A DNA stretch of 64,000 bases from Actinokineospora bangkokensis. Lineage in GTDB: Bacteria; Actinomycetota; Actinomycetes; Mycobacteriales; Pseudonocardiaceae. Where the stretch lies: NCBI RefSeq assembly GCF_001940455.1, contig NZ_MKQR01000021.1, positions 62,001 through 126,000 on the forward strand, read 5' to 3'. Below, in pieces: positions 42,284-58,858 of this stretch. The notes under the pieces are model-generated. The model was not told the origin of the DNA. It saw only the letters and a list, made by a program, of their open reading frames with translations, and did no database searches. The position numbers and the translations under genes were made by a program. Position 1 is the stretch's first letter, and each line of letters opens with the position of its first letter.

Positions 42284-42384
42284 CGGGCTCGCCCGTTGTT
42301 CGGATCTCGCTGACAGTTCGATGACGCACTAGGGCATGCGGGAGGCCCCGGTCCTCGTGACCGGGGCCTCCTGTGCTGCCCGGG

Positions 42385-42640
42385 GCTTTTGCGGCTCGGG
42401 CTTCGCCCGGAGTGAAGAGCCCGGTCGTTTTCCGGCTGGCTCGATGCGGTGGTCCTGTTTGGCCGGGGCCCCTGCGGCGATCATGTGCTCGGGGTGGGGA
42501 AAAGGTGAGGCCTGCGGCCCCACCCCCCGCCGTGAGTAGCACATGATCGCCCACCCCAGCCAAACAAGACCACCGCATCGAGCAGGGGCATAGCCGGGCC
42601 GCCTGCTGCCTAGGTGGTGACGTTGTGGGCAAAGACCGAA
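42385..42640 (-). repeat. dispersed repeat family 1, copy 1 (hairpin at 42439-42583)
   Basis: Its core hairpin (145 nt) is in minus orientation: read on that strand it starts GCTCGATGCGGTGGTCTTG, has the inner stem GCGATCATGTGCT paired with AGCACATGATCGC, and ends CAGGACCACCGCATCGAGC. An outer-stem pair is U-G in this reading, and a C-A mismatch in the other, which supports the minus strand as the sense. Flanks also match copies 3 and 4: TCTTTGCCCACAACG before the hairpin and CGACCGGGCTCTTCAC after it. It lies in the convergent gap between the coiled-coil gene and rpmB. Confidence 0.85.
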
Positions 42641-42718
42641 GAGCCCTGGCTCGGCGCCGGGTTGGGTTGGGAGGGAAGGCGCCCACCCCCACAAGCCGAG
42701 CCCGAACAGCAGGCACTG

Positions 42719-42864
42719 CCCGGTTGGGTGGATCCGCTTGGTCGGGGGTGACGATCATGTGCTACCCAACGGGACGGGCGGGCGTCTTTTCAGCCCGCCT
42801 TTTCCCCGCCCGACAGCACATGATCGTCATAGGGGCCCCGACCAAGCGGATCCACCCAACCGGG
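42719..42864 (+). repeat. dispersed repeat family 1, copy 2 (outer stem rewritten)
   Basis: Exactly 146 nt, the same length as copies 3 and 4. The outer stem has about 29 perfect base pairs, reading CCCGGTTGGGTGGATCCGCT, against GCTCGATGCGG... elsewhere, and both arms changed together. The inner stem ACGATCATGTGCT / AGCACATGATCGT is kept, as is the asymmetric bulge AGGGGC on the 3' arm. The apical loop is different. This is the best case for compensatory change in the family. Confidence 0.85.
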
Positions 42865-42996
42865 CCCACCACCCAAGCCACCCGCTTGTCCAAAACCCCG
42901 CGCAGCGCAAGCCAAGCCCGCCCCACCCCGGACACGGCAGAAACCGGCGCCCTCAGCGAGGGCGCCGGTTCCCGGGGTCTTGTCTGCTGGCTCGAC

Positions 42997-43188
42997 TCAG
43001 CCGCGAACGACCTTGCCCGCCTTGAGGCAGGAGGTGCACACGTTCAGGCGCTTCCGCTGGGAGATGCCCGTCTTCGCGTGCACGGTCTGGATGTTCGGGT
43101 TCCACCGGCGGTTGGTGCGCCGGTTCGAGTGCGAGACCGACTTGCCGAAGCCTGGCCCCTTGCCACAGACGTCGCACACGGCAGCCAC
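42997..43188 (-). CDS. rpmB: 50S ribosomal protein L28
   Basis: L28 (63 aa), a large-subunit protein. It has the Cys-containing form: [12 protein letters not shown], then [16 protein letters not shown] and [13 protein letters not shown], so two CxxC pairs bind zinc. The gene is divergent from fakA with a 180-bp gap containing its promoter. Confidence 0.97.
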
Positions 43189-43275
43189 GTCGACACTCCT
43201 TCAGGTTGCGGGTGCCCGCTTCCCCAGGGGCGCGGGCGCACTACGTCAGCCCAGGCGGGCCCAGGCGGTCGACAC

Positions 43276-43305
43276 AGAGTAGCCCGTGGGCGGTCCGCGC
43301 TCCAA
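43276..43305 (-). promoter_or_regulatory. putative rpmB promoter
   Basis: Reading the minus strand, TTGGAG (43305-43300), 18 bp, then TACTCT (43281-43276) fits a housekeeping sigma promoter. The -10 box is 88 nt before the rpmB ATG, leaving a leader of about 80 nt. The motif fit is fair; no start site evidence is available. Confidence 0.45.
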
Positions 43306-43368
43306 ACCGGGTGGCCCCACCCGGGCGGTTAGGCTCGCCGAGCAGGCGCACGACGGTGGGAGGCCCGG

Positions 43369-44988
43369 TTGCTGGAGGCACTCGACGCGGGGGCGGTCCG
43401 GCGGTGGGCGGCGGCGTGCGTCGGCGCGCTGGACGCGCACCGGGAGGGCATCGACCGGATCAACGTCTACCCCGTGGCCGACGGGGACACCGGGTCGAAC
43501 CTGCTGGGCACGGCCCGGGCGGCGCTGGAGGCGTTGCTGCGGGCGCCCGCGGCGGAGCGGGCGGACGCGGGGGCGGCGTTCGGGGTGCTGGCCACCGGGG
43601 CGCTGACCGGCGCCCGGGGCAACTCCGGGGTCATCGCCTCGCAGGTGCTGCGGGGCATGGCCGAGGCGCTGCGGGAGGTGCCGGAGGTCAGCGGGCCGGA
43701 CCTGCGGGCGGCGCTGCGCCGGGGGGCGGAGCTGGCGCGGGCGGCGATGGCGGCGCCGGTGCCCGGCACGATGGTCACCGTGGTGACCGCCGCCGCGGAC
43801 GCCACCGGCGGGGACGGGCTGCACGACGTGGCCGCCGCTGCGCTGGGCGCCGCGCTGGTGGCCCTGGAGCGCACGCCCCGCCAGCTCGGGGCGCTGGCGG
43901 ACGCGGGCGTGGTCGACGCGGGCGGGCGCGGGGTGGTGGTGCTGCTGGAGGCGCTGCTGGCGGTGGTGGAGGAGCGGGAGCCGGACCTGAGCGGCGTGGA
44001 GGTGGCCGAGCGGGTGGACAACCCCATGTTCGCCTCCCGCGAGGCAGGCTCGGACCTCTACGCCTACGAGGTCATGTACCTGCTCAACGGCGTGCCGGAC
44101 GAGGCGGCGGCGGCGCTGCGGGACGTGCTGGTCGGCATCGGCGACTCGGTGTCGGTGGTGGGCGACGGCGCGGGGCTGTGGACCGTGCACGTGCACTGCA
44201 ACGACATCGGTGCCGCGGTCGAGGCCGGGGTGGAGGTGGGCAGGCCCCGGCGCATCCGGGTCGCCCGGTTCGCCGACGCCGCCCCCCAGGCGCCCGCGCG
44301 GTTCGAGCGGGACCGGGCGGTGGTGGCGGCGGTGCGCGGGCCGGGGCTGGCGGAGCTGCTGCGCGCCGAGGGCGTCGCGGTGCTGCACGTGGAGGCGGGC
44401 ACCGACCCGACCCCGTACGAGCTGCTCCAGGTGATCACCGGGACCCGGGCGGCGCACGTGGCCGTCCTGCCCGGCGGCAGCGGCCTGGTGGACCTGGCCG
44501 ACGAGGCGGCGATCCGGGCGGTGGCGGCCGGGCAGGACGTGGTGGTCGTGCCGTGCGCGTCCCCGGTGCAGGCGCTGGCGGCCGTGGCCGTGCACGACCC
44601 CCGGCGCAGGCCCGCCGAGGACGTGGTGGCGATGGTCGAGGCGGCGACCGCCACCCGCCGCGGCGAGGTCGTGGTGGCCGCCGAGGACGCGATCACCTGG
44701 GTGGGGCGGTGCCGGGCGCAGGACGTGCTGGCCCTCTCCGACGGCGAGGTGGTGCTCGTCGAACCCGGGCCGCCGCACGACGCGGCCGTGGCGCGGGCCG
44801 CGTGCGCGGTGGTGCGCAGGATGCTCGCGGCGGGCGGCGAGCTGGTGACCGCCGTGCTGGGCCGGGACGCGCCGGGCGGGCTGGCCGAGGAGCTGGGCGG
44901 GTTCCTGCGCCGGGAGAGCCCGCAGACCGAGCTGGTCGTCTACCGCGGCGAGCAGGTTGACTCGCTGCTGGCGCTCGGCCTGGAGTGA
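43369..44988 (+). CDS. fakA: DAK2-domain fatty acid kinase FakA-like protein
   Basis: A 539-aa protein with an N-terminal DAK2/DhaL-type kinase domain (residues 1-200) carrying the metal/nucleotide motif INVYPVADGDTGSNL and the GARGNSGVI loop, and a C-terminal FakA-type region (DUF1949-like, with ELVVYRGEQ at the end). FakA phosphorylates fatty acids held by FakB proteins in many Firmicutes; in actinobacteria the role is assumed. The TTG start at 43369 has GGGAGG upstream. It precedes recG on the same strand after 116 bp, the usual neighbour pair. Confidence 0.85.
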   Translation: MLEALDAGAVRRWAAACVGALDAHREGIDRINVYPVADGDTGSNLLGTARAALEALLRAPAAERADAGAAFGVLATGALTGARGNSGVIASQVLRGMAEALREVPEVSGPDLRAALRRGAELARAAMAAPVPGTMVTVVTAAADATGGDGLHDVAAAALGAALVALERTPRQLGALADAGVVDAGGRGVVVLLEALLAVVEEREPDLSGVEVAERVDNPMFASREAGSDLYAYEVMYLLNGVPDEAAAALRDVLVGIGDSVSVVGDGAGLWTVHVHCNDIGAAVEAGVEVGRPRRIRVARFADAAPQAPARFERDRAVVAAVRGPGLAELLRAEGVAVLHVEAGTDPTPYELLQVITGTRAAHVAVLPGGSGLVDLADEAAIRAVAAGQDVVVVPCASPVQALAAVAVHDPRRRPAEDVVAMVEAATATRRGEVVVAAEDAITWVGRCRAQDVLALSDGEVVLVEPGPPHDAAVARAACAVVRRMLAAGGELVTAVLGRDAPGGLAEELGGFLRRESPQTELVVYRGEQVDSLLALGLE

Positions 44989-45104
44989 CCCGCGGGCGCC
45001 CACCTGTGGACAACCCGGGCGGGTGGCCCGGCCGCTGTCGGGGGTGCTCGACATAATCAGGCGCGCACTCACGGACGGCGATCGGGAGCGGGTGGGGTGG
45101 GGCG

Positions 45105-47291
45105 ATGACGGGCCTGGGCGAGCGGTTGGACCGGGTGGTGGGCAAGAAGTCCGCCGACGCGCTGGCGTCGGCGTTCGAGCTGCACACCGCCGGTGACCTG
45201 CTGCGCCACTACCCGCGCCGGTACGCCGAGCGGGGGCAGCTCACCGACATCGCGGGCCTGGAGATCGGTGAGCACGTCACGGTCATGGCCAAGGTCGTCT
45301 CGGTGGCCAAGCGGCAGATGAAGACCAAGCGCGGCAGCCTGGTCGAGGTCAAGCTCACCGACGGCAAGCGCGACCTGGAGTGCGCGTTCTTCAACCAGCC
45401 CTGGCACGTCGACAAGCTCAAGGCGGGCACCAGCGCGCTGTTCGCGGGGAAGGTCACCGCGTTCCGCAACAAGCTCCAGCTGGCCAACCCCGACTACCAG
45501 CTGCTCGACGTCGAGGTCGAGGGCGCTGAGGGCGCTGAGGGCGCCGTGGTGCCCGCGGTGGAGGAGTTCGCCGGCGGGCTCATCCCGGTCTACCCGGCCG
45601 CGGCCAAGATCCAGTCCTGGCAGATCGCGCAGTGCGTGCAGCAGGCGCTGGCGGTGCTCGACGAGATCGAGGACCCGATGCCGGACGAGCTGCGCAAGCG
45701 CTTGCAGGTGGCGGAGTACGACGCGGCGGTGCGCTCGATCCACCGCCCCGCCGAGTGGGCCGACCTGGAGGTGGCCCGCACCCGGCTCAAGTGGGACGAG
45801 GCGCTGGCCCTGCAGCTCGCCCTGGCCCAGCGCAGGCAGGCCGCCGGGGCGCGCCCGGCGCCCGCGTGCCCGCCCACCCCGGGCGGCATCCTCGACGCCT
45901 TCGACGCGCGGCTGCCGTTCACCCTGACCCGGGGGCAGGTGGAGGTCGGGGAGGCGGTCGCGGCCGACCTGTCCGGCGAGGTGCCGATGAACCGGTTGCT
46001 CCAGGGCGAGGTCGGCTCCGGCAAGACGATGGTGGCGCTGCGGGCGATGCTCCAGGTCGTCGACGCGGGGCGGCAGGCGGCCCTGCTCGCGCCCACCGAG
46101 GTGCTGGCCGCCCAGCACGCCCGCTCGCTGACCGAGATGCTCGGCGACCTCGCGGGCGGCGGTCAGCTCGGCGCGGCGGAGAACGCCACCGCGGTCACCC
46201 TGCTCACCGGGTCGCTGCCCACCGCCGCGCGCAAGCAGGCGATGCTCGACGCGGCGTCGGGGGCGGCGGGCATCGTGGTCGGCACGCACGCCCTGATCCA
46301 GGACAAGGTGTCGTTCGCGGACCTGGGTTTCGTGGTCGTCGACGAGCAGCACCGCTTCGGCGTGCAGCAGCGCGACGCCCTGCGCGCCCGCTCCGGCGAC
46401 GTCAGCCCGCACGTGCTGGTCATGACCGCCACCCCGATCCCGCGCACGGTGGCGATGACCGTCTACGGCGACCTGGAGACCTCGTCGCTGCGCGAGCTGC
46501 CCGCGGGCCGCTCCCCCATCTCCACCACCGTCGTGCCCGCCGCCGAGAAGCCCGCCTGGCTCGACCGGGTCTGGCAGCGCGTCCGCGAGGAGGTCGACTC
46601 CGGCCACCAGGCCTACGTGGTGTGCCCGCGCATCGGCGACGAGGACTCGAACGTGGCCGACGACGGCTCCGGCCGCAGGCCCCCGCTGGCGGTCAACGAC
46701 GTCGCCCCCGACCTCGCGGGCGGCGCGCTCGCGGGCCTGCGCGTCGACGTCCTGCACGGCCGGATGCCCCCGGAGGACAAGGACCGCGTCATGCGCGCCT
46801 TCGCCGCGGGCGAGGTCGACGTCCTCGTCGCCACCACCGTCGTCGAGGTCGGCGTCAACGTCCCGAACGCCACCGCCATGGTCATCCTCGACGCCGACCG
46901 CTTCGGCGTCAGCCAGCTGCACCAGCTCCGCGGCCGCGTCGGCCGCGGCTCCGCCCCCGGCGTCTGCCTGCTGGTCACCGACCTGCCCGCCGCCACCGCC
47001 ACCCGCGACCGCCTCGACGCCGTCGCCTCCACCCTCGACGGCTTCGAACTGGCCCGCCTCGACCTCGAACAGCGCCGGGAGGGCGACGTCCTCGGTTCCT
47101 CCCAGTCCGGCGCCAAGTCCGGCCTGAAGATGCTCTCCCTGCTCCGCGACGAGGACGTCATCGCGGACGCCCGGGTGGTGGCCCAAGCCCTCATCGCCGA
47201 CGACCCCGCGCTGACGGCCTACCCCGGGCTGGCCGGGATGGTGTCCCAGTTGGTCACCGAGGACAAGGCCTCCTTCCTGGAGAAGGCCTAG
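45105..47291 (+). CDS. recG: ATP-dependent DNA helicase RecG
   Basis: RecG (728 aa) remodels stalled replication forks and branched DNA. The N-terminal wedge/OB domain (about 1-200, VTVMAKVVSVAKRQMKTKRG) is followed by DEAD-like helicase lobes: Walker A GEVGSGKTMVALRAM at about 305, DEQH box VVDEQHRFGVQQRDAL at about 412, TATPIPRT, and the C-terminal lobe with TTVVEVGVNVPNA and QLHQLRGRVGRG at about 608. It is full length. ATG at 45105. A TTGTCCACA site lies between fakA and recG (45005-45013, minus strand). Confidence 0.97.
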   Translation: MTGLGERLDRVVGKKSADALASAFELHTAGDLLRHYPRRYAERGQLTDIAGLEIGEHVTVMAKVVSVAKRQMKTKRGSLVEVKLTDGKRDLECAFFNQPWHVDKLKAGTSALFAGKVTAFRNKLQLANPDYQLLDVEVEGAEGAEGAVVPAVEEFAGGLIPVYPAAAKIQSWQIAQCVQQALAVLDEIEDPMPDELRKRLQVAEYDAAVRSIHRPAEWADLEVARTRLKWDEALALQLALAQRRQAAGARPAPACPPTPGGILDAFDARLPFTLTRGQVEVGEAVAADLSGEVPMNRLLQGEVGSGKTMVALRAMLQVVDAGRQAALLAPTEVLAAQHARSLTEMLGDLAGGGQLGAAENATAVTLLTGSLPTAARKQAMLDAASGAAGIVVGTHALIQDKVSFADLGFVVVDEQHRFGVQQRDALRARSGDVSPHVLVMTATPIPRTVAMTVYGDLETSSLRELPAGRSPISTTVVPAAEKPAWLDRVWQRVREEVDSGHQAYVVCPRIGDEDSNVADDGSGRRPPLAVNDVAPDLAGGALAGLRVDVLHGRMPPEDKDRVMRAFAAGEVDVLVATTVVEVGVNVPNATAMVILDADRFGVSQLHQLRGRVGRGSAPGVCLLVTDLPAATATRDRLDAVASTLDGFELARLDLEQRREGDVLGSSQSGAKSGLKMLSLLRDEDVIADARVVAQALIADDPALTAYPGLAGMVSQLVTEDKASFLEKA

Positions 47292-47674
47292 CGCGGCACC
47301 GCCTCGCCCGGCAGGGGCACCCCGTCGCTGCGGGCTGCCTCCCGCGCGGACGGTTCTGTTGCGTGCCGGGCCACGGGATCGGCCGGGAACCACGCGGCCC
47401 CACCATTCCAGCCGGGCTCACAGCTCACCGGTTGTCCACAGCCCGGCGAGTTGTCCACAGCCGGTGCCGTGGGCTCCCTTTTCGTTGCCCTGCGCCGGTA
47501 GCGTTGAAAACAGGGGTCCCCTTGCCCGGGGTACGCCTGCGGCAGCGCGGGCCGAGAGGGCGACGAGGCGCGAGGCCGTAGGGGCCAAGGGGCGAGGGGG
47601 CAAGGGGGCAAAGGGACGAGGCGGCGAGGCGGCGGCGGGGGTGCCAGGTGGTGGCGGCACCCCCGGTGCGCGGG
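47292..47674. other. convergent gap recG/ung with two DnaA-box-like sites
   Basis: A 383-bp gap without a credible ORF. At 47432-47440 and 47451-47459 are two perfect TTGTCCACA 9-mers in the same orientation, 19 bp apart, matching the DnaA box form favoured in actinobacteria. The right end (47550-47650) is purine-rich with GGGGCAAGGGG-type simple repeats. Confidence 0.55.
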
Positions 47675-48349
47675 TTAGGGCAGCTTCCAGTCGATCGGTT
47701 GTCCGCCCTGCTCCTCCAGGAGGGCGTTGGCGCGGCTGAAGGGCTTGGAGCCGAAGAAGCCCGCGTGGGCCGACAGGGGGCTGGGGTGGGCGGACTCGAT
47801 GGCGGGGACGGTGCCCAGCATGGGCTTGAGGTTGCGGGCGTTGCGGCCCCAGAGGATCGCGACGAGGGGGCCGCCGCGGGCGGCGAGGGCCTTGATGGCC
47901 TGCTCGGTGACCTGCTCCCAGCCCTTGCCCTGGTGGGAGTTGGCGCGGCCGGGTTCGACGGTCAGCGCCCGGTTGAGGAGCAGGACGCCGTGGTCGGCCC
48001 AGGGGGTGAGGTCGCCGTTGGTGGGCAGGGGGTGGCCCAGGTCCTCCTGGTACTCCTTGTAGATGTTGATGAGGCTCTTGGGGATCGGCCGGACGTCGGG
48101 GGCCACCGAGAAGGAGAGGCCGACGGCGTGGCCGGGGGTGGGGTAGGGGTCCTGGCCGACGATCAGGACGCGGACGTCGGCGAAGGGCTGCTGGAAGGCG
48201 CGCAGGACGTGCTCGCCTGCGGGCAGGTAGCGGCGGCCCTCGGCGATCTCGCGGCGCAGGAACTCGCCCATGGCCGCGATCTGGTCCGCAACGGGGGCGA
48301 GGGCCTCGGCCCAGCCCGCTTCGACGATCTCCGTCAGTGGTCGTGGCAC
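47675..48349 (-). CDS. ung: uracil-DNA glycosylase
   Basis: Family 1 UDG (224 aa) that excises uracil from DNA. The water-activating loop [22 protein letters not shown] (Asp in GQDPY) and the Leu/His loop [18 protein letters not shown] are intact, with [23 protein letters not shown] between. GTG at 48349 starts [12 protein letters not shown]. The carbonic anhydrase-like gene lies 11 bp upstream on the same strand, so the two are probably co-transcribed. Confidence 0.97.
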
Positions 48350-48360
48350 GGCGTCGGAGC

Positions 48361-48894
48361 CTACTCACCCACCGCGTCGAGCCTGCGCAGGCCTTGCTTG
48401 TAGATCGCGCTGTTCTCCAGGTACTTGGCCACGATGCCCGACGTCATGTCCTCGGGGACGACGTGGCCCTCGCGCACCCGGGCGGGCACGCCGAGCGCCA
48501 TGGCGCGGGCGGGCAGGAAGCCGTTGAACGACATCACCGCGCCCGCGCCCAGCACTGCGCCGTCCTCGACGACCGATCCGTTGAGCAGCACCGACCCGGA
48601 GGCGATGAGGCAGCGGTCGCCCACGGTGGCGCCCTCGACGTGGACGTTGTGGCCGAGCACGCAGTCGGCGCCGATGCGCACCGGGTGGAACTCGGTGCAG
48701 TGCACCACCGTGCCGTCCTGCACCGACGTGCGCTCCCCGACCTCGATGGTGCCGTAGTCGCCGCGCAGCACCGCCTGCGGCCACACCGACACCCCCGCGC
48801 GCAGGGTGACCGCGCCGATGACGGTGGCGTCGGGGTGGACGTAGGCGTCCGGGTGGATGTCGGGGGTCAGGTCGCCGAGGGCGTAGACGGGCAC
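48361..48894 (-). CDS. gamma-carbonic anhydrase family protein
   Basis: A 177-aa left-handed beta-helix protein with hexapeptide repeats ([29 protein letters not shown]). The three zinc-ligand His positions of gamma-class anhydrases are present in [11 protein letters not shown] and LGHNVHVEG. Glu near [11 protein letters not shown] is also as expected. Many members of this family lack measurable carbonic anhydrase activity and function as acyltransferases or scaffold proteins, so activity is not assured. It overlaps the GNAT gene end by 28 bp. Confidence 0.87.
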
Positions 48895-49370
48895 TGCTGC
48901 TCCTGCGGGGTGAGGTCCTTCGCGAGGTGGATCGACTGCGGCGCCCCGGCGTAGTACCCGAACGGGGTCGTCGCGGTGTAGCCGGAGGTGGCGTAGAGGC
49001 GCACCGCTTCCGGCTGCGGTTCCCCGGTCTCCAGCACGACCCGGGTGCGGCCCGCGGCGAGCGCGGCCCGCTCCAGCTCAGCCAGCAGGGCCCTGGCCAG
49101 GCCGAGGCCGCGCGCGGCGGGGGTGACGTACATGCGCTTGACCTCCACCGCGTCGTCGCCGTACGTGCGCCACCCGCCGCTGGCGACCGGGCGGCCGTCG
49201 AGGTAGGCGACGAGGAACAGGCCGCGCGGCGGGGCGAACTCGGCCGGGTCGACGGGGCTGCCGTCCTGCTCGCCGTAGCGGACCACGTACTCCTGCTGGA
49301 CCTCCGCGACGAGCAGCGCGGAGTCGGGGTGGTCGTAGGGGCGGACGCGGATGTCGGTGGAGCTCGGCAC
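48867..49370 (-). CDS. GNAT-family acetyltransferase
   Basis: A 167-aa GNAT domain: DIRVRPYDHPDSALLVAEVQ at the start, RPVASGGWRTYGDDAVEVKRMYVTP, and the acetyl-CoA loop ARGLGLARALLAELERAALAAG, ending AVRLYATSGYTATTPFGYY. Substrate unknown. Its 3' end overlaps the start of the carbonic anhydrase-like gene by 28 bp in another frame, while thiL ends 14 bp upstream, placing all on one leftward transcript. Confidence 0.87.
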   Translation of the reverse strand: MPSSTDIRVRPYDHPDSALLVAEVQQEYVVRYGEQDGSPVDPAEFAPPRGLFLVAYLDGRPVASGGWRTYGDDAVEVKRMYVTPAARGLGLARALLAELERAALAAGRTRVVLETGEPQPEAVRLYATSGYTATTPFGYYAGAPQSIHLAKDLTPQEQQCPSTPSAT

Positions 49371-49384
49371 GGCCCGATTGTCGC

Positions 49385-50362: not shown

Positions 50363-50496
50363 CCTGGTCCTCCGATCACCGACAGTCTGGCGTCCCACTG
50401 GTGGACTTCCCACCACCGCGGCCCACGGCGACCCGGTCTGGGGTACGTTGCTGACACGTTCTCACCAGCCCACACCTAGCCGCGAAGGGGCGCGCC

Positions 50497-50730
50497 GTGG
50501 TCCACGCATACATCCTGATCCAGACCGAGGTGGGCAAGGCGGCCACCGTCGCCGGTGAGATCTCCGGCCTGGCGGGTGTCACGACCGCCGAGGACGTCAC
50601 CGGTCCCTACGACGTGATCGTCCGCGCCGAGGCCGACAACGTCGACCAGCTCGGCCAGCTCGTCGTCGCCAACATCCAGAACGTCGACGGGATCACCCGC
50701 ACCCTGACCTGCCCCGTGGTGCACATCTGA
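50497..50730 (+). CDS. Lrp/AsnC ligand-binding (RAM) domain protein
   Basis: A 77-aa protein that is only the RAM/effector-binding domain of Lrp/AsnC regulators (VVHAYILIQTEVGKAATVA, EDVTGPYDVIVRAEA, VDGITRTLTCPVVHI), with no DNA-binding helix-turn-helix. Such stand-alone proteins may form mixed oligomers with full Lrp proteins or bind amino acids. GTG at 50497. It is followed 19 bp later by the DUF3515 gene and so they are likely one transcript. It is divergent from thiL, as in related genomes. Confidence 0.9.
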   Translation: MVHAYILIQTEVGKAATVAGEISGLAGVTTAEDVTGPYDVIVRAEADNVDQLGQLVVANIQNVDGITRTLTCPVVHI

Positions 50731-50749
50731 CCCGTGGTCCACTGGGCCG

Positions 50750-51346
50750 GTGACCACACCGCCCGACGCCGACACCCCCACAACGCCCCCGGTCCAGGGC
50801 CTGCCCCGCCGCGCGGTCACCACCGCCGCGGTCCTGGTCGTCCTGCTCCTGGTCGGCGTCGTGGTCGCCAGCCGCTTCCTCGGTCCCGGTGACACCTCCA
50901 CCGCGACCCCCACCTCCGCACCCCCGCGCACCGGCCCCGTGGGCCTGGTCCCCGTGGAGGCCCCCGCGGCCGGGTCGACGGCGTGCACGTCCCTGGTCAC
51001 CGAGCTGAACGGCGCCCTGCCCAGCAACGGCAAGACCCTGGACCGCCTCCCCCTCGCCGACCCCGCCCCCACGGGCGCGGTGGCCTGGGGCGATCGCACC
51101 GGCGACCCCGTCGTCCTGCGCTGCGGCCTGAACAAGCCACCCGAGCTGACCCCGACCTCCCAGCTGCGGGTCATCTCCGGCGTCCAGTGGCTCCCCGTGG
51201 AAGGCGACGGCGCCACCACCTGGTTCGCCGTCGACCGGGGCGTCTACGTGGCACTCACCCTGCCCGACGGGGTGGGCACCGGCCCGGTGCAGACCGTGTC
51301 CGAGATCGTGGGCCGCGTCCTCCCCGCCCAACCCGTCACCCCCTGA
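50750..51346 (+). CDS. DUF3515 membrane-anchored protein
   Basis: A 198-aa protein with one N-terminal membrane helix (about 23-43, VTTAAVLVVLLLVGVVVAS) and an outer DUF3515 domain. It contains ACTSLVTELNGALPSNGKTLDRLPLADPAP, AVAWGDRTGDPVVLRCGL and DGATTWFAVDRGVYVALTLPDG. Two conserved Cys (ACTS, LRCG) probably form a disulfide outside the cell. DUF3515 genes in actinobacteria normally flank ddl/thiL, as here. Function unknown. Confidence 0.9.
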   Translation: MTTPPDADTPTTPPVQGLPRRAVTTAAVLVVLLLVGVVVASRFLGPGDTSTATPTSAPPRTGPVGLVPVEAPAAGSTACTSLVTELNGALPSNGKTLDRLPLADPAPTGAVAWGDRTGDPVVLRCGLNKPPELTPTSQLRVISGVQWLPVEGDGATTWFAVDRGVYVALTLPDGVGTGPVQTVSEIVGRVLPAQPVTP

Positions 51347-51740
51347 CTCCCCCGAAGGGCCCAGCCTCACCCCAACCCCGCAGCCGGGGGTTCCTTCGCT
51401 TCGCCCACAACGCAACCCCCACCGCCAGCCCGGCTACGCCCCTGCCGGAAGAAGCGGTCTTTGCCCACAACGCCACCACCCCCACAACCGGCGGCCCGGC
51501 TACGGAGGTGCTCGATGCGGTGGTCTTGTTTGGCCGGGGAAGGCGATCATGTGCTACCCACGACCGGGGGGTGGGGCCGAAGGCCTCACCTTTCCCCCAC
51601 CCCAAGCACATGATCGCCGCAGGGGCCCCGACCAAACAGGACCACCGCATCGAGCCAGCCGGAAAACGACCGGGCTCTACCAACGCCGAAGCCGAAGGCG
51701 AGGCGAGCAAGCCCCCGCAGCAAGCCCCCGCCCGCCACGA
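51347..51740. other. repeat-filled convergent gap DUF3515/ddl
   Basis: This 394-bp gap holds copy 3 of family 1 plus its shared flanks. On the left (51390-51428) is a diverged copy of the GCCCACAACGC block; on the right (51656-51720) the shared CGAAGCCGAAGGCGAGGCGAG tail. I see no ORF. Confidence 0.65.
51429..51655 (+). repeat. dispersed repeat family 1, copy 3 (hairpin at 51510-51655)
   Basis: A 227-bp stretch that matches 57184-57410 with only two mismatches that I can find. Its 146-nt hairpin starts GCTCGATGCGGTGGTCTTG (51510) and ends with the near-complementary CAGGACCACCGCATCGAGC (51655). Inner stem: GCGATCATGTGCT with AGCACATGATCGC. The 3' arm has the AGGGGC bulge. Located between convergent DUF3515 and ddl genes. 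Confidence 0.9.
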
Positions 51741-52835
51741 TCAGCGCAACCCGGTCCCCCGAGCCAGCGCCGTGTCCACCAGCGTCGCCAGCAGCGTCGG
51801 GTAGTCCACCCCGGTCACCGACCACATCTTCGGGTAGGCGGACGTGGGCGTGAAGCCGGGCATCGTGTTGACCTCGTTGATGGTCAGCTCCCCGCCCTCC
51901 CCCACGAAGAAGTCCACCCTGGCCAGGCCCTGGCAGTCCAGGGCGGTGAAGGCGCGGATCGCCATCTCGCGCAGGGCGGCGGCGACCTCGTCGTCGAGCT
52001 TGGCGGGGATGTCGAGCTCGACGGAGTCGTCGACGTACTTGGCGTCGAAGTCGTACCACTCGACCCGCTCGTCGAGGATGCGGACCTCGGCGGGGGCGGA
52101 GGCCTCGACGCGGCCGTCGGGGAACTCCAGGACGCCGCACTCGACCTCGCGGCCGACCACGGCGGCCTCGATGAGGACCTTGGGGTCGACCGCGCGGGCG
52201 GTGGCGATGGCGGCGTCCAGGTCGGACCAGTCGGAGACCTTGGTGATGCCGGTGGACGAGCCCGCGCGGGAGGGCTTGACGAACACCGGCAGGCCCAGGT
52301 GGTCGCGCTCGGCGGGGGTCAGGGTGGTGGCGGTGCGGCGCAGCTCGACGAACCGGCCCACCGGCAGGCCCTCGGCGGCGAGCAGCTTCTTGGTGAAGCC
52401 CTTGTCCATCGCGACCGCGCTGGCCAGCACGCCGGGGCCGACGTAGGGGACGCCGACCATCTCCAGCAGGCCCTGGATGGTGCCGTCCTCGCCGTAGGCG
52501 CCGTGCAGCAGCGGGAACACCACGTCCACCTCGCTGAGCACCTCGCCCTCGCGGCCCGGTTCCAGGGCGACCAGGCCCACCGACCCGGGGTCGGCGGGCA
52601 GGGTCAGCGCGGTGCCGGAGGTGACCGAGGGCAGCGTGCGGTCCTCGATGCGCAGGGTGGTGGGGTCCGCCGGGCCGAGCACCCAGCGGCCCTCGGGGGT
52701 GATGCCCACCGGGACCACCTCGAAGCGGCCGCCCGCCAGGTTGCCGAGGACGCCCGCCGCGGACAGGCAGGACACCACGTGCTCGGTGGAGCGGCCGCCG
52801 AAGACGACCGCGACCCGGATCTGAGAGCTGGCCAT
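51741..52835 (-). CDS. ddl: D-alanine--D-alanine ligase
   Basis: Ddl (364 aa) joins two D-Ala for peptidoglycan. The N-terminal domain has [20 protein letters not shown], the ATP-grasp core [27 protein letters not shown], the substrate loop [16 protein letters not shown], and the catalytic end [35 protein letters not shown]. Residues for D-Ala recognition look as in vancomycin-sensitive ligases, not D-lactate types, though this was only judged by eye. ATG at 52835. Confidence 0.97.
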
Positions 52836-52879
52836 GGTCTGGACCCTACCGGGCGCCCCGGCGCCCCCCGGAACGCGCG

Positions 52880-52913
52880 CGGGCCGCGCCCCCGGTGGTG
52901 GGGGCGCGGCCCG
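52880..52913 (-). terminator. terminator of the sigK-rskA operon
   Basis: A perfect 14-bp stem (CGGGCCGCGCCCCC at 52880-52893 with its complement at 52900-52913) and a 6-nt loop GGTGGT, 15 bp beyond the rskA stop on the minus strand. Confidence 0.7.
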
Positions 52914-52928
52914 GGCGGGCGGGGCGGG

Positions 52929-53675
52929 TCAGGCGGGCAGGGCCATCTGCATCACGACGTCGTTGCTCGGCGCCTGCGAGCCGCCGGTGGGCTCGACGGT
53001 GACGCCGACGTTGTCGGCCGCGCCGACGCCGGAGGTGTCGAGCAGGGTCGCGTGGCCCGCGTCGTCCGGCGAGATCAGCCCGATCGAGCGCGGCGCGCCG
53101 TCGCCCATCAGCCACACCTGGTAGGTCTTGCCGCTGGGCGCCGAGGGCACGTTGCCCGCCAGCAGCAGCACCTGGCCGCGCTCGCGGGAGACGACCACGG
53201 TGCCGTTGATCCCGGAGGTGGTGGTGCCGGTGACGACCTTGGCGTCGGTGGCCGACAGCAGCTCGGAGACCGCGGCGGCCTGCTGCTGGGTGGAGTCGAG
53301 CTGGTTGGTGTTGCGGACCAGCAGCACCCCCAGCGACACCGCGACCACGAGCAGGACCGCGGCGGCGATGCCGAACAGCTTCGTGGCCAGCGGCGCCGCG
53401 CGCAGCTGCTGCTTGCGCTCGCGCAGGGCGGACAGGTCGTCCAGCGGCGGCAGCTGGCGGACCTCGGCGATGCGGGCGAGCACGGCGGCCTTGAGCTCCG
53501 GCGGCGGGGGCTCGTGGGCGGCCTCGCCCAGCCGGGTCGCGGTGGCCTGCAGCTCGCGCACCTCCTGCGCGCAGGCCTCGCAGTCGGCCAGGTGGCGCTC
53601 GAACTCGGCGCGCTCGGCCTCCGGGATGGCGTTGAGGGCGTAGGCCCCGGTCAGAGCGTGGATGTCGGCGGTCAT
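52929..53675 (-). CDS. rskA: anti-sigma-K factor RskA
   Basis: This 248-aa protein regulates SigK. The N-terminal cytoplasmic domain has the ZAS-like HLADCEAC motif, then a helix at about residues 100-125 (FGIAAAVLLVVAVSLGVLLV) and an outer RskA domain with VSRERGQVLLLAGNVPSAPSGKTYQVWLM and GVTVEPTGGSQAPS, a RskA C-terminal hallmark. Release of SigK normally needs regulated proteolysis. ATG at 53675 overlaps the sigK stop (ATGA). Confidence 0.93.
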   Translation of the reverse strand: MTADIHALTGAYALNAIPEAERAEFERHLADCEACAQEVRELQATATRLGEAAHEPPPPELKAAVLARIAEVRQLPPLDDLSALRERKQQLRAAPLATKLFGIAAAVLLVVAVSLGVLLVRNTNQLDSTQQQAAAVSELLSATDAKVVTGTTTSGINGTVVVSRERGQVLLLAGNVPSAPSGKTYQVWLMGDGAPRSIGLISPDDAGHATLLDTSGVGAADNVGVTVEPTGGSQAPSNDVVMQMALPA

Positions 53676-54271
53676 CGGGCCACCCCCAGGCAGTCGCGCA
53701 TGCGGATCAGGCCGTCGCGCAGGCGGGTCTTGATGGTGCCGAGAGGGGTGTCCAGCAGCTCGGACACCTCCCGGTAGGTCAGTCCGCGGTAGTAGGCCAG
53801 TTCGACCGACTCCCGCTGCAGGTCGGTGAGCGTGGCCAGGCAGCGCCGGACCTGCTCGTGCTCAAGGCGGGTGCTGACCACCTCGGACACCTCGTCGAAC
53901 TCCCGGGTGGCCTCGCGCCGGTGCGCCTTGTCCTCCCGGTCGGTGGCGGCCTGCGCCGAGCGGACCCGGTCCACCGCGCGCCGGTGGGCCATGGTCATCA
54001 CCCAGGTCATCCCGCTGCCCCGGTCGGGGGTGTAGCGGGCGGCGGTGCGCCACAGCTCCAGCAGCACCTCCTGGGTGACCTCCTCGGACTGGGCCGGGTC
54101 GCGCACGATCCGCTTGACCAGGCCGAACACCGGCCCGCTGACCAGGTCGTAGAGCCGCTCGAAGGCCGCCTCGTCGCCGCGGGCGACCTGCTGGAGCAGC
54201 CCCCCCGCGTCGGGCGGGGCGACCGGGGCGACCTCCCGCTCACCTGCGATGTGACGCAGTCGTTCCGCCAT
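53672..54271 (-). CDS. sigK: ECF sigma factor SigK
   Basis: A 199-aa ECF sigma factor. Region 2 reads AAFERLYDLVSGPVFGLVKRIV and SEEVTQEVLLELWRTAARYTPDRGSGMTWVMTMAHRRAVDRVR; region 4 contains LTDLQRESVELAYYRGLTYREVSELLDTPLGTIKTRLRDGL, matching SigK. ATG at 54271 begins MAERLRHIAGEREV. It is coupled to rskA, the standard sigK-rskA pair. The upstream 296-bp gap is shared with a divergent cysteine dioxygenase gene; SigK may control itself and perhaps that gene. Confidence 0.93.
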   Translation of the reverse strand: MAERLRHIAGEREVAPVAPPDAGGLLQQVARGDEAAFERLYDLVSGPVFGLVKRIVRDPAQSEEVTQEVLLELWRTAARYTPDRGSGMTWVMTMAHRRAVDRVRSAQAATDREDKAHRREATREFDEVSEVVSTRLEHEQVRRCLATLTDLQRESVELAYYRGLTYREVSELLDTPLGTIKTRLRDGLIRMRDCLGVAR

Positions 54272-54567
54272 GTGCACCTGCTCCCGTGGTCCGCGCGCGG
54301 GATGGGTCCGCGGCGCCTGGCCTTTCCGCCACCGTTGGTTCGGACCGGTGGCCCCGGTGGATTGCCCCGCGCCCGCCGCCCGGGTCCCACCCCGTGGGCG
54401 CGGTTGCACCGCGCCCAGCCTGGCTGGTTGGCTCTCCCCGTGTCCAGCCGCGCCCTCGCCACCACCGGGTACTCCGCGACCCCGGGTGCGCGCGCGTGCT
54501 GTCGCCGCCGGTGATCCGCCCCATCCCAGGCCGCACCCGCAGCACGCACCCCCGCGAGGACACCACC

Positions 54568-55038
54568 ATGTTCGCCGTGCCCGCAGGCACCACCGCCACG
54601 CCCGGCTCGCTCCTGGGCGCCCACCCCGTCCGGGTCGCCACCGCCGTCGCCGCCGACCGCGCCGCCTGGGCGCACCTGCTGCGCTACGACCCCGACCAGC
54701 GGTTCACCGCCCTGGTCGAGCGCACCGCCGAGCAGGAGGTGTGGCTGATGGGCTGGTTGCCAGGCCAGGCCACCGACCTGCACGACCACGCGGGCAGCAC
54801 CGGGGCGTTCACCGTCGTCTCGGGGGTGCTCACCGAGTCGGTGGCGCGCACCGGGCGCACGGGCGAGGCCGTGCACGCCCTGGTCGCGGGCCAGTCCCGG
54901 GTGTTCGGACCGGGCTACGTCCACCAGGTGCGCAACGCCGGGCCGGACCCCGCGGTGAGCATCCACGTCTACCGCGCGGCCCGGCCCGAGATGGGCCACT
55001 ACCGGCTGGACCCGCTCACCGGTCCGCAACCCGTGTGA
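54568..55038 (+). CDS. cysteine dioxygenase family protein
   Basis: A 156-aa cupin-fold enzyme of the type I cysteine dioxygenase family, which converts cysteine to cysteine sulfinate. The iron-binding motif TDLHDHAGSTGAFTVVSG (two His) and the third His in GPGYVHQVRNAG are visible, and VSIHVYRAA is typical. ATG at 54568 follows GCGAGGA at good spacing. Its end overlaps the convergent flavin-binding gene by 23 bp. Divergent from sigK. Confidence 0.87.
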   Translation: MFAVPAGTTATPGSLLGAHPVRVATAVAADRAAWAHLLRYDPDQRFTALVERTAEQEVWLMGWLPGQATDLHDHAGSTGAFTVVSGVLTESVARTGRTGEAVHALVAGQSRVFGPGYVHQVRNAGPDPAVSIHVYRAARPEMGHYRLDPLTGPQPV

Positions 55039-55690
55039 CGTGCGACGGAACCACCCAACCGGGTGACAGGTCGGCGGCGGGGACGGGTTCGCCCGCGACC
55101 AGCGCCAGCGGCACGTGCCCGGCCCACGCCCGGTCGGCGGCGACGTCGTCCTCGTCGTCGACGGGTCCGCCCGCGCGCACCTTCACCGCCGCCTCGGCCA
55201 GGTCGACCGCGAGCACGGCGGTCGCGGCCAACTCCTTGCGCGAGGGCTGGCGTGCGTGGTCCCAGGAGCCGGGGGTCAGGTGCTCGGTGATGGCGCGCAG
55301 GCCCGCCAGCTTCTCCGCCTCGTCGGTGACAGGCACGGCGGTGCCGTGCACGACCGCCGAGCGGTAGTTCATCGAGTGGTGGAACACCGAGCGCGCGTAG
55401 ACCAGGCCGTCGAGGACGGTGACGGCCAGGCAGACCTCGACGCCGGACGCGGCGGTGCGCAGGCTGAGCGCGCCGGTGGACCCGTGCAGGTAGAGGGTGT
55501 CGTCGACGCGCCCGTAGCCGGTGGGCAGGACGAGGGGGGCACCGCGGACCACGGTGGACAGGTGGCAGACGTACCCGGCGTCGAGCACGGCGTGCAGCTG
55601 AGCGCGGTCGGCGACCGCCCGCTTCGCGCCGCGGCGGACGGTGGAGCGCTCGGTGGGCGACAGGGGCTGCTGGTGGGCTGCTGTGGTCAC
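55016..55690 (-). CDS. pyridoxamine 5'-phosphate oxidase family (FMN-binding split barrel) protein
   Basis: A 224-aa flavin-binding split-barrel protein: LHAVLDAGYVCHLSTVVRGAPLVLPTGYGRVDDTLYLHGSTGAL is the strand arrangement, followed by VEVCLAVTVLDGLVYARSVFHHSMNYRSAVVHGTAV and WDHARQPSRKELAATAVLAV. Families like this include heme-degrading and nitroreductase-like proteins, so activity is unknown. GTG at 55690. It is divergent from a MocR regulator with only 67 bp between, which suggests that regulator controls it. Confidence 0.86.
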   Translation of the reverse strand: MTTAAHQQPLSPTERSTVRRGAKRAVADRAQLHAVLDAGYVCHLSTVVRGAPLVLPTGYGRVDDTLYLHGSTGALSLRTAASGVEVCLAVTVLDGLVYARSVFHHSMNYRSAVVHGTAVPVTDEAEKLAGLRAITEHLTPGSWDHARQPSRKELAATAVLAVDLAEAAVKVRAGGPVDDEDDVAADRAWAGHVPLALVAGEPVPAADLSPGWVVPSHVTRVADR

Positions 55691-55757
55691 CCCACCAGCA
55701 TCAACGAGCAGGTGGCATCCTGGTATGGCCACAGCCAGCAGAATCCAGGAGGCCACT

Positions 55758-57158
55758 TTGCCAGACACGCCCGCGCTCCCGGTGGAGCTGGACCGCGCCT
55801 CGCCCACCCCGCTGGCGGTGCAGCTGGCCGAGCAGCTGCGCGCCTTCGCCGCCGACGGCACGCTGCGCAGCGGTGACCGGCTGCCCTCGACCCGCGCGCT
55901 GGCCGCCCAGCTGTCGGTGAGCCGGACGGTGACGGCCGCGGCCTACGAGCAGCTGCACGCCGAGGGCTGGATCACCGGCAAGCACGGCTCGGGCACCTAC
56001 GTCACCACCGCGCCGCCCGGGTCCCCCGCCGACCGCCCGCGCCCGCAGCGCGCCGCCGCGGGCCCGCCCGCCGCGGTGGACCTGCGGCCGGGCGCGCCGT
56101 GGGTGGAGGGCCTGGACCGCGCGGCGTGGCGCCGGGCGTGGCGGGGCGCCGCGGACGTCCCTCTGCTGGAGCGCCACCAGCGGGCCGGGGTCCCGGCCTA
56201 CCGGGCGGCGGTCGCCGAGCACCTGCTGCGGCACCGTGGCCTGCGGGTCAGCGGCTTCGACGACCACCACGGCGGTGAGGCGGTGCTGGCCACCGGCGGC
56301 ACCACCGCGGCGGTGTTCGAGCTGGCCAGCGCCGTCCTGCGGCCGGGGGACGTGGTGGCGGTGGAGGACCCCGGCTACCAGCGCGCGGTGGCGACGTTCC
56401 AGGCGGCGGGGATGCGCGTGGTGCCGGTGCCGGTCGACCGCGACGGCCTGCTGGTCGACGCCGTCCCGCCGGGCACCCGGGCGGTGTACTGCTCGCCCGC
56501 GCACCAGTACCCGCTGGGCCAGCGCATGTCCGCCACCCGCAGGGTCGAGCTGGTCGAGCGGGCCCGCCGCGAGTCCTGGCTGGTGGTCGAGGACGACTAC
56601 GACGGCGAGCTGCGCTACGACGTCGCCCCGCTGCCGCTGCTGGCCGCCATGGCCCCCGACGTGGTCGTGCACCTGGGCACCACCAGCAAGATCCTCACCC
56701 CCGTCCTCGGCGTCGGCTGGATGGTCGGCCCCGGCCCGGTCATCACCACCGTCCTGGAGCACCGCGACGACACCGGCACCACCCCCTCCGCTGCGGGCCA
56801 GCTCGTCCTCGTCGAACTCGCCCGCAACGGCGACCTCGGCCGCCACCTCCGCAAGCTCCGCCGGGAGCTCTCCGACCGCCGCGCCGCCCTCGTCACCGCC
56901 CTCCACCAAGCCCACCTCCCCACCCTCGGCGACGACGCGGGCGCCCACATCGTCATCCCCCTCCCCCACCCCGCGGCCGAGCGCGCCGTCATCGAAGCGG
57001 GCCGCCACCGCGCCCTCCAGCTCGACGGCCTGGCCCGCCACCACCAGGGCCCCGCCCGCACCGCGGGCCTCGCCATCGGCTACGCCGCCGCCACCCGCGC
57101 CCAGTTCACCGCCGCCATCCCCACCCTGGTCGACCTCCTGAGCACCGCCCTGACCTGA
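55758..57158 (+). CDS. MocR-type PLP-dependent regulator (PdxR-like)
   Basis: The N-terminal GntR-type winged helix (LAVQLAEQLRAFAADGTLRSGDRLPSTRALAAQLSVSRTVTAAAYEQL, then KHGSGTYV) is fused to a class I aminotransferase-like domain. The PLP Lys is in HLGTTSKILTPVLGVGWMV, with DDYDGELRYD before. The TTG at 55758 (466 aa) is chosen because AGGAGG (55747-55753) sits in front of it. The ATG at 55725 falls within a TATGGC -10-like box. It probably regulates the divergent FMN-binding gene and may sense PLP. Confidence 0.88.
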   Translation: MPDTPALPVELDRASPTPLAVQLAEQLRAFAADGTLRSGDRLPSTRALAAQLSVSRTVTAAAYEQLHAEGWITGKHGSGTYVTTAPPGSPADRPRPQRAAAGPPAAVDLRPGAPWVEGLDRAAWRRAWRGAADVPLLERHQRAGVPAYRAAVAEHLLRHRGLRVSGFDDHHGGEAVLATGGTTAAVFELASAVLRPGDVVAVEDPGYQRAVATFQAAGMRVVPVPVDRDGLLVDAVPPGTRAVYCSPAHQYPLGQRMSATRRVELVERARRESWLVVEDDYDGELRYDVAPLPLLAAMAPDVVVHLGTTSKILTPVLGVGWMVGPGPVITTVLEHRDDTGTTPSAAGQLVLVELARNGDLGRHLRKLRRELSDRRAALVTALHQAHLPTLGDDAGAHIVIPLPHPAAERAVIEAGRHRALQLDGLARHHQGPARTAGLAIGYAAATRAQFTAAIPTLVDLLSTALT

Positions 57159-57183
57159 CCCCCAAGCCCCTGTCCCCCACCAC

Positions 57184-57410
57184 CCCGGCTACGCCCCTGC
57201 CGGAAGAAGCGGTCTTTGCCCACAACGCCACCACCCCCACAACCGGCGGCCCGGCTACGGAGGTGCTCGATGCGGTGGTCTTGTTTGGCCGGGGAAGGCG
57301 ATCATGTGGTACCCACGACCGGGGGGTGGGGCCGAAGGCCTCACCTTTCCCCCACCCCAAGCACATGATCGCCGCAGGGGCCCCGGCCAAACAGGACCAC
57401 CGCATCGAGC
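57184..57410 (+). repeat. dispersed repeat family 1, copy 4 (hairpin at 57265-57410)
   Basis: Nearly identical to copy 3 over 227 bp (two differences seen: GTGGT for GTGCT in the inner stem, and GGCC for GACC in the 3' arm). The hairpin occupies 57265-57410. Located in the convergent gap between the MocR gene and the lyase gene. The 3' flank also matches copy 3 to about 57475 (CGACCGGGCTCTTCA... then CGAAGCCGAAGGCGAGGCGAG). Confidence 0.9.
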
Positions 57411-57479
57411 CGCCAACAAACGACCGGGCTCTTCACAGCCGCCGAAGCCGAAGGCGAGGCGAGCAAGCCCCCGCCACAA

Positions 57480-57604
57480 ACCACCTACCACAAACCCCCC
57501 GCAAGCAGCGGATTCCATCCACAGCCCCCAGGGATCCCCCGATTTCCATCCTCCTCCACCCCACCGACATCCCCGGCGCAACGACCGGGAGTTGTCCACA
57601 GCCC
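57480..57604. repeat. dispersed repeat family 3, copy B
   Basis: Matches 8425-8552 in block order: CTACCACAAACC, TCCATCCACAG, GGGATCCCCCGATTTCCATCC, CCGACA, and GTTGTCCACAG. The final block holds TTGTCCACA at 57592-57600. It stands directly after family 1 copy 4 in the same 478-bp convergent gap. Confidence 0.6.
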
Positions 57605-58849: not shown

Positions 58850-58858
58850 GCGGCGGGG

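What the first reader, a model, noticed from the sequence alone, without database searches (positions are those of the whole stretch)
42385..57410. A polar 146-nt hairpin repeat in convergent gaps with compensatory stem changes
Seen: four copies (42439-42583 minus; 42719-42864, 51510-51655 and 57265-57410 plus), all 145-146 nt. Each has an outer stem of 26-29 bp, an asymmetric AGGGGC bulge on the 3' arm only, an invariant inner stem GATCATGTGCT / AGCACATGATC and a variable apical domain. Copy 2 has a rewritten outer stem in which both arms change together, and in copies 1, 3 and 4 an A/G exchange is tolerated only as a G-U pair on the strand defined by the bulge. These facts argue for selection on an RNA or extruded-DNA fold, not on sequence. 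All copies lie between the 3' ends of convergent genes. No U-run follows, so simple intrinsic termination is not an adequate explanation. Copies 3 and 4 share 227 bp with two differences, which suggests recent spread or gene conversion. I know of no named family with this core.
Basis: seen in the sequence. Interest (0 to 1): 0.82.

Follow-up and report, generated by a model that had tools for sequence, protein, structure and literature searches.

The report
Mobile giant-hairpin repeats between bacterial genes
A 146-base giant hairpin is repeated over a hundred times in one soil bacterium, mostly just after the ends of genes, and related species carry their own rewritten versions of it; in some relatives pairs of such hairpins bracket a gene of a nuclease-like family, which suggests a little-known kind of mobile DNA.

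Summary
The window lies in Actinokineospora bangkokensis. The oriented core occurs at 126 places there; 0 of 118 fetched elements lie in a predicted gene and 67 of 96 occupied gaps are convergent (about 10% of unoccupied gaps). Pairing is kept while sequence changes: 20 of 50 pairs in 44 own copies and 42 of 50 in 33 sequences from other congeners show double-sided changes. A covariance model finds the architecture (30-bp outer stem, AGGGGC bulge on the 3' arm, inner stem, apex) in 15 of 16 Actinokineospora genomes and in seven other Pseudonocardiaceae genera, but in none of 196 other genomes drawn from the class. One convergent gap of 258 bp holding a hairpin is a 4-bp gene overlap in a 93.6%-identical relative, so units are gained or lost. 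In another genus, all 12 fetched hairpin regions hold a DUF222 (13E12-type) gene, usually with an outward-facing hairpin at each end; two further genera each show one DUF222-HNH case. Best reading: ends, and solo miniature derivatives, of a DUF222/HNH mobile element. Mobility by that protein is inferred; no DUF222 gene was found beside fetched Actinokineospora hairpins. General intrinsic termination is not supported.

The parts
42439..42583 (-). Hairpin copy 1 (145 nt); apex type GGTGGGGCC..GGCCTCACC; bulge AGGGGC at 42468-42473 (-); inner arms 42538-42548 and 42479-42489
42718..42865 (+). Hairpin copy 2 (148 nt), class GCCCGGTTGGGTGG; bulge AGGGGC 42831-42836; inner arms 42753-42763 and 42815-42825
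42439..42865 (.). Outward-facing inverted pair (copy 1 -, copy 2 +) in one convergent gap; same order as the hairpin pairs around DUF222 genes in genus g20
51510..51655 (+). Hairpin copy 3 (146 nt); bulge AGGGGC 51621-51626; inner arms 51545-51555 and 51605-51615
57265..57410 (+). Hairpin copy 4 (146 nt); bulge AGGGGC 57376-57381; inner 5' arm 57300-57310 carries one mismatch
51429..51656 (+). 228-bp block identical in copies 3 and 4 except two positions: 5' flank plus hairpin
51656..51707 (+). 3' flank whose parts recur among copies of this class (AAACGACCGGGCT..GCCGAAGCCGAAGGCGAGGC)
42340..42371 (.). Separate ordinary hairpin GGAGGCCCCGGT..ACCGGGGCCTCC after the left gene
   Evidence: read directly
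42942..42972 (.). Separate ordinary hairpin AACCGGCGCCCTC..GAGGGCGCCGGTT after the ribosomal L28 gene
   Evidence: read directly
50750..51346 (+). Left neighbour of copy 3, DUF3515 protein
51741..52835 (-). Right neighbour of copy 3, D-ala-D-ala ligase; in ten congeners only 6-83 bp separate the matches of the two neighbours

Best explanation
The hairpin is the structural end module of a mobile element. In its full form (seen in other Pseudonocardiaceae genera) two outward-facing hairpins bracket a gene for a DUF222 protein of the 13E12 type, with an HNH domain detectable in two of three genera. In Actinokineospora it is seen as solo units of very roughly 250 bp (5' flank, hairpin, 3' flank) or mostly outward-facing groups: miniature, non-autonomous derivatives spread over the genome. 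Copies persist where they do least harm, between 3' ends of convergent genes. The fold is kept because the mobilising machinery, presumably the DUF222/HNH protein, recognises the hairpin on the strand defined by the AGGGGC bulge, as extruded or single-stranded DNA or as RNA. Shown: repeat family, covariation, polarity, intergenic placement, presence/absence at orthologous gaps, hairpin-DUF222-hairpin composites. Inferred: that the DUF222 protein moves them, which nucleic acid is recognised, and that Actinokineospora solos derive from such composites.
For: 126 oriented cores in the genome, control 0. CM R1 hits in 15 of 16 Actinokineospora genomes, own included; R2 hits in 23 of 200 family genomes, 10 of them Actinokineospora and 13 in seven other genera; R3 hits in 6 of 8 chosen family genomes and in none of 196 other genomes drawn from the class. 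Presence/absence: stop-to-stop distance 258 bp with the hairpin in G190, a 4-bp overlap of the two convergent genes in G220, 93.6% identical over 4.1 kb of another locus; the convergent gap of window copy 3 is 394 bp here, 6-83 bp between matches in ten congeners. 0 of 118 own elements inside predicted genes; 67 of 96 occupied gaps convergent against 9-11% of unoccupied gaps (8% by length), p 2e-42 or less; G236 18 of 33 and G190 21 of 30 gaps convergent, none inside genes. G142: 12 of 12 fetched hairpin regions hold a DUF222 gene (11 with 381 open codons, one partial), a second hairpin in 9 of 12. Composite with DUF222 2e-36 and HNH 1e-5 in genus g31 (L338); DUF222 1e-31 and HNH 1e-5 beside a hairpin in g8 (L278). 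Outward order: 15 of 18 close own pairs, 11 of 15 multi-copy gaps in G236, as in the composites.
Against: No DUF222 gene was found near fetched Actinokineospora hairpins: none in own loci and window, only a weak E 0.05 hit in one G236 locus, none in 396 kb from seven congeners; the whole genomes were not searched for DUF222. In genus g20 the HNH domain is not recognised by Pfam above cut-off (E 0.015 in L283, none in L284 and L331). DUF222 adjoins 1 of 8 fetched G030 places and none fetched from G022, G055, G193 or G183. No target-site duplication was recognised by eye. Cross-genus homology of the hairpin rests on architecture and short motifs, R2 scores 54-79 bits. The composite could also be a DUF222 element that settled between existing hairpins.
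Confidence: 0.5

Rival explanations
1. A host-useful RNA element: a 3'-end hairpin that stops or insulates converging transcription, or shields mRNA 3' ends, amplified and kept where it helps.
For: 67 of 96 occupied gaps convergent; single copies in tandem gaps are sense to the upstream gene 17 against 6, p 0.035; wobble pairs favour one strand, copy-weighted G.U:A.C 103:15 own, 85:7 G236, 17:0 other congeners, 1:0 G190; a shared orthologous hairpin in G190/G220 is 139/145 identical with flanks 183/241 and 215/265, including two compensated stem changes; 26 of 58 single convergent copies have no other perfect stem of 7 bp or more in the gap.
Against: Positions are not conserved: the same convergent gaps lack it in relatives. 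T-run within 40 nt in 29 of 113 own copies, 1 of 21 other congener copies, 3 of 18 from other genera, but 0 of 62 in G236 and 0 of 30 in G190. In the window copies 1 and 2 sit between two other hairpins, and 32 of 58 single convergent copies have another stem of 7 bp or more in the gap. Arrays of up to five units in one gap serve no obvious termination need.
Confidence: 0.27
2. Arms stay complementary without selection: template switching or gene conversion between arms and between copies makes quasi-palindromes perfect.
For: Within a species copies are homogenised and classes are mosaic; in the two deeply sampled genomes the numbers of distinct mismatch positions do not favour G.U over A.C (own 10 against 10, G236 4 against 7); the shared G190 locus could have been converted from another copy.
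Against: Arm correction should erase the bulge, yet an asymmetric AGGGGC-type bulge recurs on the 3' arm in the species and most genera looked at; recurrent mismatches are mostly G.U on one strand, and 7 positions against 0 in the other congeners; pairing retained with almost wholly different stems.
Confidence: 0.13
3. REPIN-type element moved by a RAYT (Y1 HUH transposase).
For: High copy number, extragenic, palindromic, species-specific sequence, inverted pairs.
Against: PF01797 matches in only 2 of 16 Actinokineospora genomes, not in the own genome nor in G236 with about 146 copies.
Confidence: 0.04

Closest known systems
REP / REPIN elements (RAYT-mobilised)
   Same: Short extragenic palindromic repeats in many copies, species-specific sequence, single and inverted-pair forms (REPIN description from the search listing of PMC3116915 and recall)
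   Different: Far longer hairpin with 30+14 bp stems and a polar bulge; no Y1 transposase found in the genome; stems rewritten with covariation
MITEs
   Same: Small non-coding units with inverted ends, presence/absence at an orthologous gap, plausible parent element with similar ends
   Different: The end itself is a complete giant hairpin; no target duplication recognised; the parent protein would be DUF222/HNH, not a classical transposase
REP13E12 / 13E12 (DUF222-HNH) repeats of Mycobacterium tuberculosis
   Same: Same protein family between the hairpins (PF02720, PF01844); REP13E12/HNH endonuclease/DUF222 is listed as a repeat category in PMC10589994 (passages read); the 13E12 name itself is recalled
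   Different: No hairpin match in 196 other genomes drawn from the class; ends of REP13E12 itself were not examined here
IS200/IS605 and OMEGA (TnpB/IscB) elements
   Same: Structured element end adjoining a nuclease gene (recalled)
   Different: No Y1 enzyme in the own genome; symmetrical outward hairpins; only a weak PDB sequence hint of the HNH part to IscB (E 0.06-0.46)
Intrinsic terminators
   Same: Stable hairpin beyond stop codons
   Different: No general U-tract, far longer stems, not conserved in position

Membership tests
REPIN/REP | RAYT (Y1 HUH transposase) in the genome | tested here: not met
   PF01797: none in the own genome, matches in 2 of 16 Actinokineospora genomes
REPIN/REP | Extragenic, high copy, palindromic | tested here: met
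MITE-like non-autonomous element | Presence/absence at orthologous sites | tested here: met
   258-bp gap against 4-bp gene overlap, G190/G220; one clean case; of five G190 places tried, one more was shared and the rest were unclear or unmatched
MITE-like non-autonomous element | Target-site duplication | tested here: inconclusive
   none recognised by eye
MITE-like non-autonomous element | Autonomous parent with the same ends in the same genome | tested here: inconclusive
   candidate parent in G142; not found in fetched Actinokineospora DNA
13E12 (DUF222-HNH) element | DUF222 plus HNH protein in the element | tested here: inconclusive
   both domains in L338 and L278; DUF222 only above cut-off in L283, L284, L331; none near own copies
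Intrinsic terminator | U-tract after the stem | tested here: not met
   T-run within 40 nt: 29/113 own, 0/62 G236, 0/30 G190; a minority of own copies would qualify
Known RNA family | Rfam match | tested here: not met
   0 matches at gathering threshold in window 40000-60000
IS200/IS605 | Y1 transposase | tested here: not met
Integron attC | Cassette array with IntI and R'/R'' boxes | not tested
   considered from memory only

The most novel reading that the evidence does not exclude
DUF222-HNH proteins are the enzymes of an unrecognised class of mobile element whose giant polar hairpin is read as a structure (RNA or single-stranded DNA), perhaps an OMEGA-like nucleoprotein whose hairpin transcript runs outward into flanking DNA, and whose recognition stem is rewritten from species to species while its shape is kept.
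Probability: 0.12. Interest if true: 0.93.

Novelty: new variant of a known kind. Interest (0 to 1): 0.74.

Why it matters
DUF222/13E12 is a named repeat protein with little interpretation in the library searched (one search lists 15 papers holding a word that begins with 'DUF222'; in the one whose passages I read it is only a repeat category). Linking it to structured hairpin ends and miniature derivatives would give it a role and make it testable. The family is also an unusually clean natural experiment in RNA/DNA structure evolution: up to about 150 copies per genome, with most stem positions changed in a compensated way between species.

Tried and rejected
RAYT/REPIN: searched, no Y1 transposase in the own genome. 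Rfam: no match at gathering thresholds in 20 kb. U-tract terminator: no general U-run. Strict 'G-U only' argument: softened, because distinct mismatch positions are balanced or reversed in the two best-sampled genomes. In one search one of five measures, further pair types, does not exceed shuffles (39 against 40.3). The IS3-like rve/HTH transposase between two G236 hairpins (L257) was judged a secondary insertion. The 1.66-kb interval in L043 holds DddA-like and Imm1 genes, not DUF222. The largest protein cluster near own copies (12 loci) looks like low-complexity frames; the next (4 loci each) are regulator- and ABC-type genes by eye; neither was followed. The exact-core scan of genome contigs also hit a Microbacterium and a Thermoplasmata contig; R2 found nothing in those loci. 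DUF222 on plasmids: only distant Arthrobacter and Tsukamurella hits, not pursued. Ten literature searches showed no description of this hairpin family or of hairpin-ended DUF222 elements; subscription papers and preprints are mostly not covered.

Rows dropped before counts: of 118 detected own elements, 113 had both arms and full flanks for arm counts; six with an unknown neighbour were left out of the 112 context calls, and one of these, L135, is probably spurious. Position 31 of the arm alignment, outside the stem, was left out of the mismatch counts (which kept it, gave 117 G.U for own). Hit counts can include reverse-strand duplicates and are capped by scored candidates per genome (150, or 15-16 with stricter filters). 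Context and mismatch counts for G236 use 62 places and for G190 30 places, the better-scoring part of the 148 and 43 matches listed. R2/R3 pair counts are on alignments fitted to the model and lean towards its structure. Gene calls are from my own codon-usage script, not a standard caller.
Full report
What is there. The four hairpins are present as described, with small corrections to coordinates and to the 'invariant' inner stem. The window belongs to G000, 7,453,713 bp in 32 contigs, which matches the published A. bangkokensis 44EHW draft in length, scaffold number and largest scaffold (passages of PMC6273641 read).

Genome-wide. The core GATCATGTGCT occurs 89+86 times, reversed control 0; the oriented 22-base core with up to two mismatches at 126 places, control 0. 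With up to one mismatch, 33 of 297 family genomes match, but many times only in the own genome, G045 (14) and G136 (8). I fetched DNA around most own copies and detected 118 elements in it (one is doubtful). None lies inside a predicted gene. Of 112 with both neighbours called, 76 are convergent, 35 tandem and 1 divergent. By gap, 67 of 96 occupied gaps are convergent, while 9-11% of unoccupied gaps in the same loci are. The unit is longer than the hairpin: roughly 50-60 bp of 5' flank and 50 bp of 3' flank recur by class, judged by eye. Of 18 neighbouring pairs within 2.5 kb, 15 face outward. Three of the 118 retain only one half, with the break in the apex.

Structure. In 44 non-redundant own copies, 99.1% of cells pair (shuffles 89.3%), 20 of 50 pairs have double-sided changes and the covariation score is 0.309 against 0.129, none of 500 shuffles reaching these; slid controls give 0.03-0.06; the number of further pair types (39) does not exceed shuffles (40.3). 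The inner stem is nearly fixed in this species while the outer stem varies.

Other species. Model R1 gives matches in 15 of 16 Actinokineospora genomes, from 3 (G220) to 149 (G078), counts that can include both-strand duplicates and are capped. The species looked at mostly have their own inner stems (for example GAAGAAAGGCCCCT in G190, GAAGGAAGATCGCC in G152, several related versions in G236; G045 and G136 share the own core), while the outer frame and the AGGGGCCCC bulge recur. In 33 such sequences from eleven congeners 42 of 50 pairs have double-sided changes, covariation 0.643 against 0.173. In G236 the outer stem is the more constant part and the inner stem varies, and up to five units share one gap; 11 of 15 multi-copy gaps are in outward order, three hold only same-direction copies and one is inward. 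Model R2 matches 23 of 200 family genomes at E 1e-6 or less: 10 Actinokineospora and 13 in seven other genera, with the bulge on the same side, an AAGCT-like motif after the inner 5' arm in several, and unrelated stem sequence (by eye). R3, built from the 13, finds 88 (G022), 40 (G142), 24 (G030), 19 (G193), 9 (G055) and 1 (G183) matches and none in G081 or G024; in 197 genomes drawn from the class only the own genome matches (stricter filters, 16 candidates scored per genome).

Strandedness. Outer-stem mismatches within 30 positions, weighted by copy, are G.U on the strand with the 3' bulge more often than A.C: 103:15 own, 85:7 G236, 17:0 in 21 other congener copies, 1:0 in G190; transversion-type mismatches number 33, 28, 2 and 1. 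Against a strong reading, distinct mismatch positions are 10:10 in own and 4:7 in G236, so the excess there comes from a few recurrent positions (16, 17, 25 in own; 13, 24, 26 in G236); in the other congeners they are 7:0. This favours a single-stranded form but does not prove it.

Gain and loss. At G190:182331 two convergent genes are 258 bp apart, stop to stop, with the hairpin between them; in G220, 93.6% identical over another 4.1-kb locus, the same genes overlap by 4 bp, and 270 bp in G190 face 8 bp in G220 between aligned sequence. This was one of five G190 places compared; one other was shared, two were rearranged or unclear, and one found no counterpart in the fetched G220 DNA. The convergent gap of window copy 3 is 394 bp here, while 6-83 bp separate the matches of the two genes in ten congeners. 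At G190:236911 the hairpin is shared with G220: 139 of 145 identical with 3 gap columns, flanks 183/241 and 215/265 with 62 and 60 gap columns; two of the changes are compensated pairs (positions 27 with 118, 41 with 102) and one stem change is not (17). That is one locus, and conversion from another copy is possible.

The gene between hairpins. In G142 and G109 (one genus) hairpins come as outward pairs about 1.5 kb apart. The interval encodes a 380-381-aa protein with DUF222 (PF02720; E 7e-18 to 8e-23 in three tested); its C-terminus looks HNH-like by eye, but Pfam HNH reaches only E 0.015 in L283 and nothing in L284 or L331. All 12 G142 regions I fetched, each chosen because a hairpin lies there (40 R3 matches in that genome), hold this gene: 11 with full-length open frames, one partial; a second hairpin is seen in 9 of 12, in L333 by its arms only. 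In another genus, L338 has hairpins at 773-896 (-) and 2161-2286 (+) around a gene with PF02720 at 2e-36 and PF01844 at 1e-5. In a third, L278 has a gene at 175-1299 (-) with PF02720 at 1e-31 and PF01844 at 1e-5 beside the hairpin at 1501-1640. Other fetched loci, including those from Actinokineospora, show no such gene beyond a weak E 0.05 hit in L245. A protein clustering found DUF222 as the one gene common to the G142 loci and no convincing companion gene for own copies.

Mechanism. I read the hairpin as the cis end of a DUF222/HNH mobile element and the solo units as its miniature derivatives, tolerated mainly at convergent 3' ends. The mobilising role of the protein, the nucleic acid it recognises and the descent of the Actinokineospora solos from composites are inferences. 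A host role at 3' ends is the main rival: placement, sense bias in tandem gaps (17 against 6) and wobble asymmetry fit it; turnover of positions, lack of a T-run in G236 and G190, and separate hairpins in many gaps (32 of 58 single convergent copies have another stem of at least 7 bp; 26 do not) speak against it as the general reason.

Literature. Ten searches of the held library showed no account of this family. PMC10589994 (passages read) lists REP13E12/HNH endonuclease/DUF222 only as a repeat category in Mycobacteria. REPIN papers were seen as search listings only.

Noticed in passing
L043:2985-4125 (G000:C6, between a hairpin and a half hairpin): A DddA-like deaminase gene (PF14428, E 9e-29) and an Imm1 gene (PF14430, E 2e-9) on the minus strand sit in a 1.66-kb interval next to a half hairpin.
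   Followed up: partly
L228:10569-11327 (G220:C70): Tandem array of a 92-bp unit, 8.2 copies at 98% match, near the place where G190 has a giant hairpin.
   Followed up: partly
L140:2668-2926 (G045:C77 contig end): Array of about 68-bp units containing hairpin-arm-like segments beside the orthologue of the gene right of window copy 3; the contig ends there.
   Followed up: partly
L257:813-2035 (G236): IS3-like transposase genes (rve, HTH_Tnp_1) between two outward hairpins about 1.5 kb apart, apparently a secondary insertion.
   Followed up: partly
L043 +4244, L108 +2709, L083 minus strand, L051 (own genome): Half hairpins in which one half is missing, with the break in the apex.
   Followed up: no
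own inverted pairs L080, L101, L105, L121 and several 5' flanks of the GCCCGGTTGGGT class: A second conserved intergenic motif, GGTAACGTTGAAAACAGGGGTCCCCTTGCCCGGG.TACC, 5' of the hairpin.
   Followed up: no
3' flanks of own copies, e.g. 51687-51705: Mini hairpins with GNA loops on the + strand, i.e. UNCG-type loops on the - strand, between the giant hairpin and the opposing gene (by eye).
   Followed up: no
G190:C1:3353181-3353546 and G179:C1:4831705-4832067: Single Y1 transposases in two of 16 Actinokineospora genomes, not tied to hairpin copy number.
   Followed up: no
G100:C2:722736/723029, C6:154851/155116, C4:385620/386795: In this congener close hairpin pairs face inward (+ then -), unlike the outward order elsewhere.
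   Followed up: no
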